Shown here: piece after piece, positions 19,241 through 30,476 of the stretch
How the letters are laid out: each line of letters opens with the position of its first letter
Numbering within the stretch: position 1 is the stretch's first letter
From: an uncultured Erysipelotrichaceae bacterium
Lineage (GTDB): Bacteria; Bacillota_I; Bacilli_A; RFN20; CAG-826
Length of the DNA: 35,493 nucleotides
Reading direction: 5' to 3'
Assembly (NCBI GenBank): GCA_902803375.1
Contig: CADCPN010000004.1
Coordinates: 1 to 35,493, forward strand
Program-made: the position numbers and the translations under genes
The notes under the pieces: model-generated
Told to the model about the DNA's origin: nothing
Database searches by the model: none
Seen by the model: only the letters and a program-made list of their open reading frames with translations

Positions 19241-20434
19241 ATGAAGGGAAACATGGTCTACCTGCAGTCTGGCGGCCCCACCGCCGTCATTAACACGAGC
19301 CTTTTGGGCGCGATTATGGAAGCAAGGCTCCATACTGACGAGATCACGGGGATCTATGGCTCCCGCCATGGCATCGAGGGATTGCTTAACGATGACCTCA
19401 TCGATTTAAACGCCGAGGAGCAGGGGCAACTCGATCTCCTCACCCAGACCCCCGGCGCGATCTTGGGCACCTCCCGCACTCGTTTGCCTTCTAACATCAA
19501 CGACCCCGAATATGAGACCGTCCTCTCTACGCTGAAGCGCCATAACATCACCTATGTCTTCGTCAATGGGGGCAACGACTCGATGGACACCTGCAGCAAG
19601 CTCTCTCTCCTTTGCAAGGATAGGAGCTTGGATATCCGCGTCCTCGGCATCCCCAAGACCATTGATAATGATCTTGCCATCACCGATTTTTCCCTAGGAT
19701 TCCCAAGCGCCGCCAAAGCGGTCATCAACGAGGTACAATCCCTCTATATCGATGCCGCCAGCTTTGGCAAAGGAAAGGTCTATATTGCTGAGATCATGGG
19801 CAGGCAGGCGGGATGGCTCGCCGCCAGCTCCTCCCTTATCCCCTCCCCCTACACCCCGGACCTCATTTTGCTGCCAGAGGCTAAGCTAGATGTGGAGCAG
19901 ATTATGGCGAAGATCAAGGATACCTATGAGAAAAAGCACGTTTGCATGGTCGTCGTCAGCGAAGGCGTCATCTTCGACCGCGACTTGAGCGCTACCCACG
20001 TCGACGCGTTTGGCCATCCTGAGCTAGAAGGCGTCTCCCGCCATCTCCTATATAGGCTAAAGAAGCTAGGCTACCCCTGCCGCGACATCGTTTTCTCCAT
20101 CCCCCACCGCTGCGAACCGAGCTACCTGTCTAAGTTCGACCTAGACATGGCCTCGAAAGCGGGGCGCTTTGCCGTAGTTGAGGCAATAAAAGGCGAATCG
20201 GGCAAGATGGTCGCCATCAAAAGGGAAGAGAACCATTTCTCCTATTTCCTCGCTGATGTTAGCAAGATCGCCAACGTCGATAAGAACTTCCCCGCCTCAT
20301 GGATCAATCCTGACTATTCCGTCTGCGGAGAGTATAAAGATTACCTAAAGCCCCTCATCGAAGGGGAGCCAACGTTGCGTTATCAAGGCGGAATCCTCTT
20401 GCATACAACTCTGAAAAATAAGAGAGTTAAATAA
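19241..20434 (+). CDS. Pyrophosphate-dependent 6-phosphofructokinase
   Basis: Protein of 397 residues of the PfkA superfamily. Two positions separate PPi- from ATP-using enzymes, and both have the PPi form: GGNDS (110-114, Asp where ATP enzymes have Gly) and PKTIDND (138-144, Lys where ATP enzymes have Gly). MGR (186-188) is the fructose-6-phosphate-binding motif, and YIAEIMGRQAGWLA is typical. It interconverts fructose-6-phosphate and fructose-1,6-bisphosphate using PPi, reversibly, in the cytoplasm, and would save ATP in glycolysis. The length fits the roughly 400-residue PPi-PFK group. A GAGGA sequence about 8 nt before ATG 19241 serves as ribosome binding site. Biochemical proof of the phosphoryl donor is absent. 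Confidence 0.92.
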   Translation: MKGNMVYLQSGGPTAVINTSLLGAIMEARLHTDEITGIYGSRHGIEGLLNDDLIDLNAEEQGQLDLLTQTPGAILGTSRTRLPSNINDPEYETVLSTLKRHNITYVFVNGGNDSMDTCSKLSLLCKDRSLDIRVLGIPKTIDNDLAITDFSLGFPSAAKAVINEVQSLYIDAASFGKGKVYIAEIMGRQAGWLAASSSLIPSPYTPDLILLPEAKLDVEQIMAKIKDTYEKKHVCMVVVSEGVIFDRDLSATHVDAFGHPELEGVSRHLLYRLKKLGYPCRDIVFSIPHRCEPSYLSKFDLDMASKAGRFAVVEAIKGESGKMVAIKREENHFSYFLADVSKIANVDKNFPASWINPDYSVCGEYKDYLKPLIEGEPTLRYQGGILLHTTLKNKRVK

Positions 20435-20594: not shown

Positions 20595-21077
20595 GTGAAA
20601 AGAAACTCTATGAGCAAATTGTCTACTTGGTATATCTCCGCAAGCGAAACGAAGAGAAACGTCTTCGTACTTTGCTGCGTCGCCATCGTTGGCTTTGCAT
20701 CTTTATGCCTCTTCTTCCTCCTTGGCAACCCTGGCCTTCCCCTAGGTTGGCTATTGGGAAGCCTTGTCGGCATGCTCTGCTATTTATCCAACGTCTTCGG
20801 CGCGAAGAACCTCACAGGTGATGCCGCCAATCCCAAAGGGAAAGGGGTTGCCATCACCGTCGGACTATTCTTCCTCCGTTTTGCCTTGATAATCGGCGCC
20901 CTCGTCCTCTCGGCGATGTGCACCTTCAAATGGAAGAACTCCATGCTCTCCATCTGGAGTGTTGGGGCCGGATATTTCCCCATGGTTATCGTGCTCGCCA
21001 TCGGAGCCATCGCCTCCGATCGGCGTTATAAGAAACTAGAGGAAGAAGCAAAAGAGAATCAGGAGGAAGGCAAATAA
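20595..21077 (+). CDS. AtpI-like membrane protein of the ATP synthase operon
   Basis: Protein of 160 residues from GTG 20595 (AAGGG 7 nt upstream); ATG 20610 is an alternative start, and earlier in-frame starts overlap the promoter. Four hydrophobic segments (about 18-40, 44-62, 85-110, 118-140) and a charged, coiled C-terminus match the topology of AtpI, the small protein often encoded first in atp operons, thought to help c-ring assembly or Mg2+ handling. GWLLGSLVGMLCYLSN is similar in style to AtpI. Similarity is weak, so the family is assigned mainly from size, topology and position. Its stop overlaps the atpB start by 1 nt. Confidence 0.7.
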   Translation: MKRNSMSKLSTWYISASETKRNVFVLCCVAIVGFASLCLFFLLGNPGLPLGWLLGSLVGMLCYLSNVFGAKNLTGDAANPKGKGVAITVGLFFLRFALIIGALVLSAMCTFKWKNSMLSIWSVGAGYFPMVIVLAIGAIASDRRYKKLEEEAKENQEEGK

Positions 21078-21886
21078 TGGATTTCCTTACCTTTGACGGC
21101 GCCCTCGACAAAGTCGTCGACGCCTTCAAAAACGGCTGGTCCACCTTTGAGCTTACCGGACCCGTCATCGTTTCCTTGCTCATCATGGGGATCGTGGCGC
21201 TGCTGTCCATTTATGTCGGCATCCGCGCATCCTTCCAGGACCCGCTAAAAAGGCCGAAGGGCCTTCTTAACCTCGCCGAGATGTTCGTTTCCTGGGTCGA
21301 TAACTGGGTCGTTGAGAACATGGGCGTGAAGCCAGGCACCAATTGGGGCGGCTACTTCACTGCGCTATTCTCGTATCTGTTCCTCTCCTTCATCTGGAGC
21401 ATCACCGGCATGAGAAGCGTCATCGACTACCTTCTCGTCCCCTTCACCCTTTCCTGCATCATGTTCATGATCATTCAGATCGTGGCCTTGAAGCATCAGA
21501 AATTCGCCTATTTCCACCGTTACATCGAGCCAGTCTTCTTCTGGCTTCCGATCAACCTCATCACGATGTGGGCGCCGATCATCTCGACCTCGCTTCGTAT
21601 GTTTGGCAACGCCCTCGCCGGCTCTGTCATCCTCGCCCTCATCGACTGGGCGCTGCAGAGCCTCTCGGCCCAGCTCTTCGCCTTCATGGGAGAGTGGGGC
21701 CGCATCTGGTTGAGCCCGATCCCCCTTGCGATCCTCAACCTTTACTTCGGCTTATTCTCCGGGTTCGTGCAGACCCTCGTATTCGCCTCGCTTAACGCGG
21801 TTTGGATCGGAGCGGAAATCCCCTCCGAGGAACCGATGGGCGTGACGGAGCAGGTCATTCGTCCCGAAGCCAATAAGGCCCAATAA
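21077..21886 (+). CDS. atpB: F-type ATP synthase subunit a
   Basis: Protein of 269 residues with five or six membrane segments. The SLRMFGNALAG segment holds the essential arginine (R174, equivalent to E. coli aArg210) that faces the c-ring. GMRSVIDYLLVPF (111-123) is a typical subunit-a motif. It forms the ion half-channels in the membrane-embedded Fo part. The start overlaps the upstream stop (TAATG), and AGGAGG lies 10 nt ahead. Subunit a contributes to ion selectivity together with subunit c. Confidence 0.97.
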   Translation: MDFLTFDGALDKVVDAFKNGWSTFELTGPVIVSLLIMGIVALLSIYVGIRASFQDPLKRPKGLLNLAEMFVSWVDNWVVENMGVKPGTNWGGYFTALFSYLFLSFIWSITGMRSVIDYLLVPFTLSCIMFMIIQIVALKHQKFAYFHRYIEPVFFWLPINLITMWAPIISTSLRMFGNALAGSVILALIDWALQSLSAQLFAFMGEWGRIWLSPIPLAILNLYFGLFSGFVQTLVFASLNAVWIGAEIPSEEPMGVTEQVIRPEANKAQ

Positions 21887-21918
21887 AAACCATATAAAGA
21901 GAACTTAGGAGGTTAATT

Positions 21919-22194
21919 ATGGGATTCTTCAATATGTTGGCGACCATCATGCCGGTCTTCGCCGATGCCAGCCAGACTGGCCTAATCGCAATCGGCGCTG
22001 CCATTGCCGTTTGCTGCGGCACTTTCTCCGCTGTCGGCGAAGCTCTTGTCTGCTGCCACGCCATCGACGGCATGGTCCGCAACCCGGAACAGGCTGGCAA
22101 ACTTCGCTCCACGATGATTCTTGCCGTCGCTCTTTGCGAATCGACCGCAATCTACGCATTCGTCACCGCCATCCTTATCTTGTTCACCCTTTAA
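21919..22194 (+). CDS. atpE: F-type ATP synthase subunit c, two-carboxylate type
   Basis: Protein of 91 residues forming the membrane rotor; two helices joined by the RNPE loop (54-57). The second helix has E74-S75-T76, the arrangement found in Na+-binding c subunits. Aligned by hand to the Ilyobacter tartaricus c subunit, the first-helix Na+ ligand Gln32 is E41 here, giving a two-carboxylate site as described for Fusobacterium nucleatum. The usual GxGxGxG packing motif of helix 1 is eroded (GAAIAVCCGTFSAVG) and there are two CC pairs, so ring size may be unusual. AGGAGG lies 8 nt before the ATG, the strongest ribosome binding site of the operon, consistent with the high copy number of c. Confidence 0.96.
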   Translation: MGFFNMLATIMPVFADASQTGLIAIGAAIAVCCGTFSAVGEALVCCHAIDGMVRNPEQAGKLRSTMILAVALCESTAIYAFVTAILILFTL

Positions 22195-22214
22195 TCTGAA
22201 AGACAGCAACCACT

Positions 22215-22790
22215 ATGCTCGATACGATTCTATTCACAACTAGAATCCTTGCAGCGAGCGGAGAGGACGCCATCAGTAAGGATGATCTCATCTCGAAGAT
22301 CTTCCCGACCCATCCTTGGGACCTCGTCGTCCAGCTCATCGCTTTCCTTTTGCTAATCGCCATCGTCACCTTCCTCGGCTACAAACCGGTGAAGAAGCTT
22401 CTTAAGAAGCGCGCCGACTACGTGCAAGGACAGATCGCGGAAGCGCAGGAGAAGAACAAGGCCGCCGAATTGGCCGCCTCCAAAAAGGAAGAGACCATCG
22501 CTGAAGGTCGCCTAGAAGCCGAGCGCATCGTCAATAACGCCAAAAAGACCGCCGAGGAGTCCGCCAAATCCATCCGCGCGGAAGCCGAGGCCGATGCCGA
22601 GGCTAGACGCGCCAGGGCCGACAAGGAGATCGAAGAGGCCAAAGAGGCATCGCTAGAAGAGGTCAAAGCCTCGATCGTCGATGTCGCCCTCAGCGCCTCC
22701 AGCGCTTTGCTAGGGCGCGAAGTCGACTCCGAAGACAATCGAAAGCTCGTCTCCTCTTTTGTCGACAACTTGAAGGAAGAAGGTAAGTAA
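22215..22790 (+). CDS. atpF: F-type ATP synthase subunit b
   Basis: Protein of 191 residues: an N-terminal extension, one membrane helix (about 36-55, VVQLIAFLLLIAIVTFLGY) and a long charged coiled coil rich in alanine, glutamate and lysine, ending in a hydrophobic SSALLGREVDSEDNRKLVSSF tail that contacts delta. It is the peripheral stalk (stator). No clear Shine-Dalgarno precedes ATG 22215, so it may depend on translation from atpE, 20 nt upstream. Confidence 0.94.
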   Translation: MLDTILFTTRILAASGEDAISKDDLISKIFPTHPWDLVVQLIAFLLLIAIVTFLGYKPVKKLLKKRADYVQGQIAEAQEKNKAAELAASKKEETIAEGRLEAERIVNNAKKTAEESAKSIRAEAEADAEARRARADKEIEEAKEASLEEVKASIVDVALSASSALLGREVDSEDNRKLVSSFVDNLKEEGK

Positions 22791-22792
22791 TC

Positions 22793-23335
22793 ATGGATGA
22801 GGTCACCTCTAACTATGCTTCCGCGCTCTTCTCCCTTTCGCAGGCGTCGCTGCATCGCAAATATCTAGAAGCCCTTGAAGGGTTCAATAAGCTCCTTGTG
22901 GAAGAGCCTACTTTCTATGCGGTCCTACGTTCCTATAACGTCAGCAAAAAGGAGAAGGAAGAGCTCATCGACCAAGCAAGCAGAGGCTATGGCCTACCCG
23001 CCCTTACCAACTTCATCAAAGTCGTGTCTTCCCATCACCGCATCTCCTCCTTCGAGAAGATCGTGAAGGCTTACGCAAGCCTCCTAAATGAGGAAGAAGG
23101 GGTCAAGGAAGGCGTTGCCTATTCCGCGGAGAAGCTATCGAAAGAGCAGCTCTCCAGCATTGAGGAGGCTTTGGAAAAGAAGCTCTCATGCAAGGTAAAA
23201 CTGACTAACCGCGTCGAAGAGACCCTCCTTGGGGGCGTCAAGGTCGCCATCGACGGCAAAGTCTATGATGGCAGTTTGCGCAACAAGCTGCTTGAACTAC
23301 AGAAAACACTGAAACGTGGAGGTAAATCGCTATGA
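22793..23335 (+). CDS. atpH: F-type ATP synthase subunit delta
   Basis: Protein of 180 residues. The N-terminal six-helix part (1-105) and the C-terminal [31 protein letters not shown] segment, with the G-G-(V/I) and D-x-S-(L/I) pattern, are typical of OSCP/delta. It joins the b stalk to the top of F1. GAAGG in GAAGGTAAGTAATC precedes the ATG, 2 nt after the atpF stop. Its stop overlaps the atpA start by 4 nt (ATGA). Confidence 0.95.
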
Positions 23336-24843
23336 AGATCGATTCCAGCGAAATCACTTCCCTTCTAAAGGCCCAGATCAAGGGCTATGAAGGAAAGCTA
23401 GAGACCGACGATGTCGGCACCGTCATCTCCGTCGGAGACGGCATCGCCCTTTGCTATGGCCTCGATAAGGCGATGCTAGGCGAATTGCTGCTCTTCCCCC
23501 ATGACGTTTATGGCATGGTCATGAACCTCGACGCCGAGGATGTCGGCGCCGTACTTCTTGGCGATGATAGGGAGATCATGGAAGGCGACACCGTCAAACG
23601 CACCCATAAGGTCGTTGAGGTTCCCGTCGGAGACGGACTCCTTGGCCGCGTCGTCAATGCCTTGGGCCAGCCCATCGATAATTCCAATCCCATCCCCTAT
23701 ACCAAGACCCGCCCGATCGAGCGCATCGCCCCGGGCGTCATGACCCGTAAGAGCGTCGATACCCCGCTTGAGACCGGCATTAAGGCCATCGATGCCATGA
23801 TTCCTATCGGACGCGGCCAGCGTGAGCTCATCATCGGCGACCGCCAGACCGGCAAGACCGCCATCGCCCTCGACACCATCATCAACCAGAAGGGCAAGAA
23901 CGTGAAATGCGTCTACGTCGCCATCGGCCAGAAGAACTCTTCCGTCGCTAGTCTGGTCGAGAAGCTAAAGACCCTTGGCTGCATGGATTACTGCACCGTG
24001 GTCGCCGCCACCGCTTCCGAGTCCGCCCCGCTTCAATACATCGCTCCCTTCGCCGGCATGGCGATGGCGGAGGAGTGGATGGAGCAGGGACAGGATGTCC
24101 TCATCGTCTTCGATGACCTCTCCAAGCACGCCGTCGCCTACCGCACCCTCTCCCTCCTTTTGAAGAGAGCCCCGGGTCGCGAAGCCTATCCTGGCGATAT
24201 TTTCTATCTCCATTCCCGCCTTCTTGAGCGCGCTTGCCGCTTGGCCCCGGAATATGGAGGAGGCTCCATCACCGCCCTCCCGATCATCGAGACCCAGGCC
24301 GGTGACATCTCCGCCTACATCCCGACCAACGTCATCTCCATCACCGATGGCCAAATCTTCTTGGTCGTCGATTACTTCAATGAGGGCCAGCGCCCTGCTA
24401 TCGATTCTGGCTTCTCCGTCTCCCGCGTCGGCGGCGCCGCCCAGACCAAAGCGATGAAATCCGTCGCCAAATCCCTAAAAATTGAGCTCGCCTCCTATCG
24501 CGAAATGCTAAGCTTCTCGCAGTTTGGCAGCGACCTAGACCCCGCCACCAAGAAGATCCTTTCTCACGGCGCCGTCTTAATGGAGACCCTCAAGCAGAAG
24601 CAATATAGCCCCTATCCGCTTTGGAAGCAGGTCCTTGAGCTCTATGCCGTCAAGAACAGGTATCTCGACGACCTAGAGAAGAAGGAAGTTCTCCCCTTCC
24701 TGGCTGGATTAGACGAATACTTCGCCGCCAACTATAAGGAAGCCATCGATACCCTAATGGAGAAGAAGGCCTTCGACGATGCGCTGACCGCCACCTTCGA
24801 AAAGGGCGTTTCCGAATACAAAAATAGCAGAAAGAAGCAGTAA
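23332..24843 (+). CDS. atpA: F-type ATP synthase subunit alpha
   Basis: Protein of 503 residues, the usual length. The P-loop GDRQTGKT (169-176) binds non-catalytic nucleotide, and the beta-barrel, nucleotide-binding and helical domains are in the standard order. The arginine finger lies within the [10 protein letters not shown] signature. It alternates with beta in the F1 hexamer. GGAGG precedes the ATG, which overlaps atpH by 4 nt. Confidence 0.98.
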
Positions 24844-24845
24844 GC

Positions 24846-27567
<2,722 letters not shown>

Positions 27568-29936: not shown

Positions 29937-30476
29937 ATGAATATTCTTCATGCCGTCGATAAAGCTCGCGTTACCCCTGAGCATTTCCTCTCCTGCGTTG
30001 AGATCCCCGCCGGATCTAGCGCCAAATATGAGCTGGACGTCAACTCTGGCGCCCTAATCCTCGACCGCATTCTCTACACCGCCACCCACTACCCGCAGAA
30101 CTATGGCTTCATCCCGAGAACCTGGGGTCTAGATGAGGACCCGATGGACGTTCTCGTCATCGCCTCTTCCCCAATCGTTCCGATGGCTTTGGTCCGCTGC
30201 TATCCAATCGGCATCCTTGAGATGACCGATTCTGGCGAAGTCGACCAGAAGGTCCTTGCAATCTGCGAGAATGACCCGGTCTATAATAGCTTCAAGGACA
30301 TCAAGGATCTCCCCCAGCACATCTTGGATGAGATCAAGCACTTCTTCACCGTCTACAAACAGCTTGAGCACGGCAAGGAAACCGTCATCGAAGGCATCCA
30401 TGGCGCCAAGATGGCGAAGGAGGCGATTGCTGAGGCCAGAGCTCGTTACGATGCCAAATTCCCGGACAAAAAATAA
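29937..30476 (+). CDS. ppa: Inorganic pyrophosphatase, family I
   Basis: Protein of 179 residues, the usual length for bacterial family I enzymes. It has YPQNYGFIP (about 53-61) and the DEDPMDVL signature (66-73), which holds the metal-binding aspartates. It hydrolyses PPi to two phosphates in the cytoplasm with Mg2+. Its 3' end overlaps the next gene by 26 nt. Together with a PPi-using phosphofructokinase in the same window, it would draw on the same PPi pool. Confidence 0.96.
   Translation: MNILHAVDKARVTPEHFLSCVEIPAGSSAKYELDVNSGALILDRILYTATHYPQNYGFIPRTWGLDEDPMDVLVIASSPIVPMALVRCYPIGILEMTDSGEVDQKVLAICENDPVYNSFKDIKDLPQHILDEIKHFFTVYKQLEHGKETVIEGIHGAKMAKEAIAEARARYDAKFPDKK

What the first reader, a model, noticed from the sequence alone, without database searches (positions are those of the whole stretch)
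21919..22194. ATP synthase c subunit with a two-carboxylate, probably Na+-binding site
Hand alignment places E41 where Ilyobacter has the Na+ ligand Gln32, and E74-S75-T76 at the ion-binding carboxylate. A two-carboxylate c-ring that binds Na+ has been described for Fusobacterium nucleatum. The helix-1 glycine pattern is eroded and two CC pairs are present, so the ring size may also be unusual.
Basis: partly seen in the sequence, partly recalled or inferred. Interest (0 to 1): 0.58.

Follow-up and report, generated by a model that had tools for sequence, protein, structure and literature searches.

The report
Two-carboxylate sodium-type ATP synthase ring
This uncultured bacterium's ATP-making rotor carries all the amino acids that hold a sodium ion in the Fusobacterium rotor, and its genome also encodes two sodium-type pumps, so it probably runs on sodium; most of this is a known kind of machine, with an unusual packing surface that may change the rotor's size.

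Summary
ORF 21919-22194 is atpE (subunit c) in a complete F-type operon. Its best match among solved structures is the Na+-binding, two-carboxylate c11 ring of Fusobacterium nucleatum, aligned without gaps: E41=E32, L72=V63, E74=E65, S75=S66, T76=T67, Y79=Y70. Every side-chain ligand of that site is present. The same genome has an Rnf cluster and an oxaloacetate decarboxylase cluster of the Na+-pump type. Na+ coupling is the best reading, but no ion was measured, and a ring with a very similar site (Burkholderia pseudomallei N-type c17) is H+-specific. E41 is family-wide (E in 93, D in 2 of 95 distinct rows), whereas most of the class has Gln. The helix-1 glycine motif is eroded (2 of 5 glycines, F at the Gly27 place); this is strong across the family but occurs more mildly elsewhere, so ring size is open. 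CC45-46 is common in close kin; CC32-33 was seen only here. New point: close relatives carry a third acid next to the key Glu (D64-E65); the window has Cys there, apparently a derived loss. Mostly a new member of a known kind.

The parts
21919..22194 (+). atpE, F-type ATP synthase subunit c, 91 aa
21907..21912 (+). AGGAGG, ribosome-binding-site-like, 6 bases before the ATG
   Evidence: read
22039..22041 (+). codon of E41, place of Fn Glu32 / It Gln32
   Evidence: ungapped alignment
22018..22044 (+). helix-1 packing motif G34-x-F36-x-A38-x-G40-x-A42 (Fn G25-G27-G29-G31-G33), 2 of 5 glycines kept
22135..22155 (+). C73 (Fn A64; Asp in most close kin), E74 (Fn E65), S75 (S66), T76 (T67), Y79 (Y70)
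22012..22017 (+). codons of C32-C33, a pair seen only in the window protein among the rows
22051..22056 (+). codons of C45-C46, common in the genus and in g24
21077..21886 (+). atpB, subunit a; R174 (codon 21596-21598) aligns with the stator arginine of chloroplast subunit a
20610..21077 (+). atpI-like gene (ATP-synt_I 25.6 bits, cut-off 25.1; scanned from 20613)
22215..22790 (+). atpF, subunit b
22793..23335 (+). atpH, subunit delta
23332..24843 (+). atpA, subunit alpha (TIGR00962 over cut-off)
24846..25730 (+). atpG, subunit gamma
25745..27154 (+). atpD, subunit beta (TIGR01039 over cut-off)
27151..27567 (+). atpC, subunit epsilon

Best explanation
The gene encodes the rotor subunit of an ordinary F1Fo-ATP synthase whose ring binds Na+ at a Fusobacterium-type two-carboxylate site. 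Shown by sequence: a hairpin c subunit; E41 on helix 1 and E74, S75, T76, Y79 on helix 2 in register with the F. nucleatum ligands; the stator Arg in subunit a; Rnf and oxaloacetate decarboxylase genes in the same genome. Inferred: between neighbouring subunits Na+ is held by E74, E41, S75, the backbone oxygen of L72 and a water on T76, with Y79 hydrogen-bonded to E74. E41 stays protonated, so only Na+ is moved. R174 of subunit a opens the site. The decarboxylase and Rnf pump Na+ out, and its return turns the ring to make ATP, or the ring runs backwards as a Na+ pump during fermentation. The eroded glycine motif suggests a ring that need not be c11.
For: Best PDB match is the F. nucleatum ring, ungapped, all side-chain ligands kept (ligand list PMC3692424 sections 7 and 14; PMC2359735 passages). 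Modelled hairpin (mean pLDDT 80, pTM 0.54) aligns residues 11-91 with 3zk1 2-82, the same offset of 9. One PF00137 match in the whole held genome, so this is its only detected c or K ring. Rnf C, D, G, E, A and a short B in one cluster. Decarboxylase alpha (NF008985 750 bits, cut-off 718), biotin carrier and beta subunit (TIGR01109 466 bits, cut-off 190.6) in one cluster. E41 and Y79 held across the family. Rnf plus a Na+-F1Fo as a two-limb chain is shown in Thermotoga maritima (PMC7414866, abstract).
Against: The two-carboxylate motif does not fix the ion: S. pneumoniae and M. tuberculosis rings are named as H+ users with it (PMC3692424 section 14), and B. pseudomallei c17 (Glu30, Glu61, Thr62, Met63, Tyr66) is H+-specific. 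Within the genus the Thr67 place is Cys in 7 of 13 rows read, so the water ligand is not guarded. Rnf is present in 11 of 15 and the decarboxylase in 5 of 15 genus genomes; G065 and G081 (95% and 94% complete) have neither but share the site type. Rnf can be Na+-independent (PMC4715464, abstract). A PF00999 exchanger is in all 15 genus genomes, so Na+ and H+ gradients may be interchangeable.
Confidence: 0.74

Rival explanations
1. The ring is H+-coupled. E41 is a permanently protonated hydrogen-bond donor, as in the B. pseudomallei N-type ring, and the Na+ ligand set is an inheritance that no longer decides the ion at the organism's Na+/H+ ratio.
For: A ring with nearly the same set is H+-specific; S. 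pneumoniae and M. tuberculosis rings are listed as H+ users with two carboxylates; Cys at the Thr67 place in 7 of 13 genus rows.
Against: The window keeps Thr at 76 where B. pseudomallei has Met; S75, T76 and Y79 all match the Na+ rings; the genome carries a TIGR01109 beta subunit of Na+ decarboxylases.
Confidence: 0.2
2. The ring takes both ions (Na+ and H+) under cell conditions, as reported for Methanosarcina acetivorans.
For: A two-carboxylate example that couples to both is described in PMC3692424 section 14; position 73 is Cys here instead of the Ala of the two Na+ rings shown and could shift the pKa.
Against: Nothing here points to it directly; the ligand set equals that of F. nucleatum, which moves Na+ only.
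Confidence: 0.06

Closest known systems
Fusobacterium nucleatum c11 ring (3zk1/3zk2), two-carboxylate Na+ site
   Same: Glu at 32 and 65, Ser66, Thr67, Tyr70, ungapped alignment; best PDB match
   Different: Val63 to Leu, Ala64 to Cys, glycine motif GxGxGxGxG to GxFxAxGxA, five cysteines; no measurement of ion or size
Ilyobacter tartaricus c11 ring (1yce)
   Same: Glu65, Ser66, Thr67, Tyr70; ungapped
   Different: Gln32 there, Glu41 here; eroded glycines here
Burkholderia pseudomallei N-type c17 ring
   Same: second Glu on helix 1, Thr next to the key Glu, Tyr; broken glycine motif AxGxAxAxG (PMC5376962 passages)
   Different: Met at the Thr67 place, H+-specific, N-type operon; the window operon is F-type
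Thermotoga maritima Rnf plus Na+-F1Fo chain
   Same: Rnf genes and a predicted Na+ ATP synthase in one genome (PMC7414866, abstract)
   Different: here prediction only; a decarboxylase pump is added

Membership tests
F-type ATP synthase subunit c | curated profile match and place in an atp operon | tested here: met
   PF00137 59.7/24 bits, TIGR01260 48.1/43.95 bits; I-a-c-b-delta-alpha-gamma-beta-epsilon order
Two-carboxylate Na+ c ring (F. nucleatum type) | Glu on helix 1 at the Gln32 place plus the key Glu on helix 2 | tested here: met
   E41 and E74, ungapped alignment to 3zk1
Two-carboxylate Na+ c ring (F. nucleatum type) | Ser/Thr66, Thr67, Tyr70 | tested here: met
   S75, T76, Y79
Two-carboxylate Na+ c ring (F. 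nucleatum type) | Na+ binding and Na+ transport | not testable with these tools
   needs DCCD/NCD-4 competition and transport assays
Two-carboxylate Na+ c ring (F. nucleatum type) | c11 ring with intact helix-1 glycine motif | tested here: inconclusive
   motif: 2 of 5 glycines, so not intact; subunit number not testable here, and c11 is not known to be a requirement
N-type (alternate) ATPase | NCBIfam alternate-F1Fo models over their cut-offs | tested here: not met
   TIGR03322 29.9/130.85, TIGR03306 47.3/302.1, TIGR03305 583/752, TIGR03324 595.3/750.5
Na+-translocating carboxybiotin decarboxylase (elsewhere in the genome) | beta-subunit, alpha-subunit and biotin-carrier profiles in one cluster | tested here: met
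   TIGR01109 466/190.6, NF008985 750/718; biotin carrier 91.8 bits but under its cut-off of 159
Rnf complex (elsewhere in the genome) | rnf C, D, G, E, A, B genes in one cluster | tested here: met
   C 305/246, E 224/213, B 71.3/68.7 over cut-off; D 174/207, G 40/102, A 210/229 below it, with Rnf models as their best matches

The most novel reading that the evidence does not exclude
The order around this organism uses a Na+ ring with three acids per subunit (E32 on helix 1, D64-E65 on helix 2) built on a largely lost glycine packing motif, hence with a subunit number other than 11. The window protein is a derived form in which Cys has replaced the third acid. If so, it would break the so far unbroken link between Na+-coupled F-type rings and c11, and show a new kind of ion site.
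Probability: 0.2. Interest if true: 0.6.

Novelty: new member of a known kind. Interest (0 to 1): 0.36.

Why it matters
Two-carboxylate Na+ rotors are known in structure from Fusobacterium. Here the same site is held across a whole family of bacteria whose class mostly has Gln at that place; named close relatives are uncultured Erysipelotrichaceae and Bacilli genomes. Schulz et al. (PMC3692424, section 14) note that all Na+-coupled F-type rings characterised were c11 with a glycine-rich helix 1, and leave open whether that is a rule. A ring with the full Na+ ligand set but 2 of 5 glycines makes that question testable by one purification and a subunit count. The extra Asp in close kin, missing in the window, gives a natural comparison for how a third acid affects ion choice.

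Tried and rejected
Membrane pyrophosphatase as Na+ source: 0 of 15 genus genomes. NhaC-type antiporter PF03553: 0 of 15. A second rotary ATPase in this genome: only one PF00137 match, in a genome 88.5% complete. The CC pairs as a disulfide or ring-size signal: CC45-46 is common in the genus and in g24; I found nothing to tie either pair to ring size. 'Glycine erosion unique to the family': my first class comparison (47 rows, mostly high-scoring Pfam matches) showed Gly in 46 at the Gly27 place; to test the bias I fetched 20 lower-ranked class rows and found Gly in 10, Ala in 4, Met/Leu/Phe in 6, so I dropped the word unique. Literature on a three-carboxylate F-type ring or on this lineage's ATP synthase: the listed results held nothing on it (12 of 24, 10 of 577 and 10 of 17 papers listed; titles and abstract starts only). 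D73 outside the order: a pattern search over 392 genomes hit 16, all in families f1 and f2, but that draw listed only the window's own class. A fold of the whole ring was not possible; the monomer model has pTM 0.54 from 7 rows and says nothing about ring size.

Rows dropped: of 141 places listed I read 110 (30 given as loci, 80 fetched). Of 50 class loci read, L145 is of the window's family and L144 and L147 are longer, misaligned frames (V-type-like); these three were left out of the 47. The tree is a quick LG+G4 search with some long branches joined; only its well-supported 25-row clade is used.

Full report
What is there. The stretch 21919-22194 (+) is an intact gene for 91 residues preceded by AGGAGG. 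It lies in a complete F-type operon, atpI-like, a, c, b, delta, alpha, gamma, beta, epsilon, 20610-27567. Alpha and beta pass the curated F-type cut-offs and miss those of the alternate (N-type) models. The whole held genome (1.67 Mb, 64 contigs, 88.5% complete) has just this one PF00137 match.

The site. phmmer against PDB sequences ranks the F. nucleatum Na+ ring first (E=2.9e-11) and the I. tartaricus Na+ ring second (2e-10), both without gaps. With offset 9 the window's E41, L72, C73, E74, S75, T76, Y79 fall on Fn E32, V63, A64, E65, S66, T67, Y70. In F. nucleatum, Na+ is held by Glu65, Glu32, Ser66, the Val63 carbonyl and a water on Thr67; Glu32 carries a fixed proton, and Tyr70 and Ser66 donate hydrogen bonds to Glu65 (PMC3692424, section 7). 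All side chains of that list are kept; the Val63 ligand is a backbone atom, so Leu should be harmless (inference). An AlphaFold2 monomer (mean pLDDT 80, pTM 0.54, 7 rows) gives a hairpin of helices 19-54 and 56-90. Its structural alignment to 3zk1 runs 11-91 against 2-82 (Z 9.1, rmsd 5.9 over 81), the same register, though many H+ rings score as high or higher. So the fold does not separate ions.

How general. In 146 genomes of the same family, 132 have a subunit c match, at 141 places; I read 110 of these. Over 95 distinct rows, position 41 is E in 93 and D in 2; 74 is E in 95; 79 is Y in 95; 75 is T in 69 and S in 26; 76 is T in 68, C in 19, V in 5, I in 2, A in 1. The full set (Q/E, E, S/T, S/T, Y) is complete in 66 of 95. 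In 47 rows from the rest of the class, position 41 is Q in 37 and E in 10, and in 20 further, lower-ranked rows Q in 18 and E in 2. So the second carboxylate is a stable family trait, shared with the sister family f2 (4 of 4 rows) and scattered elsewhere in the class.

Na+ pumps. Both are in this genome. On contig 53 lies a cluster with RnfC, D, G, E, A and a short B (113 aa). On contig 3 lies a cluster with oxaloacetate decarboxylase alpha, a small protein without a match, a biotin carrier and the beta subunit of Na+-translocating decarboxylases. That the beta subunits of this family are Na+ pumps is from general knowledge and the model's name. In the genus, Rnf is found in 11 of 15 and the beta subunit in 5 of 15 genomes, and two good genomes (G065, G081) have neither though their c subunits have the same site. 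So the pumps support Na+ use here but do not track the site in every relative. A PF00999 exchanger is in 15 of 15.

Limits of the Na+ reading. Two carboxylates do not prove Na+. PMC3692424 section 14 lists S. pneumoniae and M. tuberculosis as H+ users. The B. pseudomallei N-type ring has Glu30, Glu61, Thr62, Met63 and Tyr66 and is H+-specific (PMC5376962, passages). The window differs from it by Thr at the Met63 place, and Thr67 is described as apparently binding Na+ through a water (PMC2359735, passages). In 7 of 13 genus rows this residue is Cys. I put Na+ coupling at about three in four.

Glycine motif and ring size. The window keeps 2 of 5 motif glycines, with Phe at the Gly27 place. In the family 85 of 95 distinct rows keep 3 or fewer, and 71 of 95 have neither Gly, Ala nor Ser at the Gly27 place; all of 45 distinct class rows keep 4 or 5. 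That class set leaned to high Pfam scores. In 20 lower-ranked class rows 7 keep 3, 8 keep 4 and 5 keep 5, and 6 have Met, Leu or Phe at that place. Erosion is thus strong in the family, not unique to it. Changes of these glycines to alanine can raise the subunit number, and AxGxAxAxG goes with c17 (PMC5376962, passage). Which number the present ring has cannot be told from sequence.

A third acid in the relatives. At position 73 (Fn Ala64), beside the key Glu, 31 of 110 rows have Asp (27 of 95 distinct rows), and 3 of 4 f2 rows do too. A pattern search for A-x-D-E-[ST]-x-[AG]-I-Y (degenerate DNA) over 392 genomes, all listed ones of the window's own class, hit 16, all in f1 or f2. On a quick tree of subunit a the window sits inside a supported clade of 25 rows in which 23 have Asp; the two exceptions (window, L026) both have Cys. 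So Cys73 looks like a derived loss of a third acid. From recalled E. coli cross-linking data and a helical wheel, this residue should face helix 1 rather than the lipid, but I did not measure this on coordinates.

Verdict. The system is a new member of a known kind (F. nucleatum-type two-carboxylate Na+ ring) with two features that may make it a variant: an eroded packing motif and, in its kin, a third acid.

Noticed in passing
L113 1992-2273 and L114 295-507 (genome G085), likewise other genomes of genus g26: Genus g26 genomes carry two F-type a/c gene pairs. One c has T-E-T-T-Y, the other [IV]-E-[ST]-[VI]-Y without the Thr67 place, as if one ring were Na+-type and the other H+-type.
   Followed up: partly
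L131 3371-3712: RnfB is only 113 aa and matches just the N-terminal part of the RnfB models (71.3 bits, cut-off 68.7); the ferredoxin-like part is missing or elsewhere.
   Followed up: no
window 21919-21966: Subunit c of this genus mostly has an extra N-terminal stretch (predicted short helix 4-16 in the window protein) that the g24 rows lack; it ends like a signal-peptide site but has no positive charge.
   Followed up: partly
L132 7379-8992: A gene that reads like ATP-dependent PEP carboxykinase follows the oxaloacetate decarboxylase cluster, suggesting a shared oxaloacetate node; named by eye, not tested.
   Followed up: no
window 19241-20434 and 29937-30476: A phosphofructokinase-like gene (possibly PPi-dependent) and a soluble inorganic pyrophosphatase-like gene flank the atp operon; named by eye, not tested.
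   Followed up: no
L075 and L076 (genus g33): The second carboxylate is Asp instead of Glu, seen only in this genus among the rows read.
   Followed up: no
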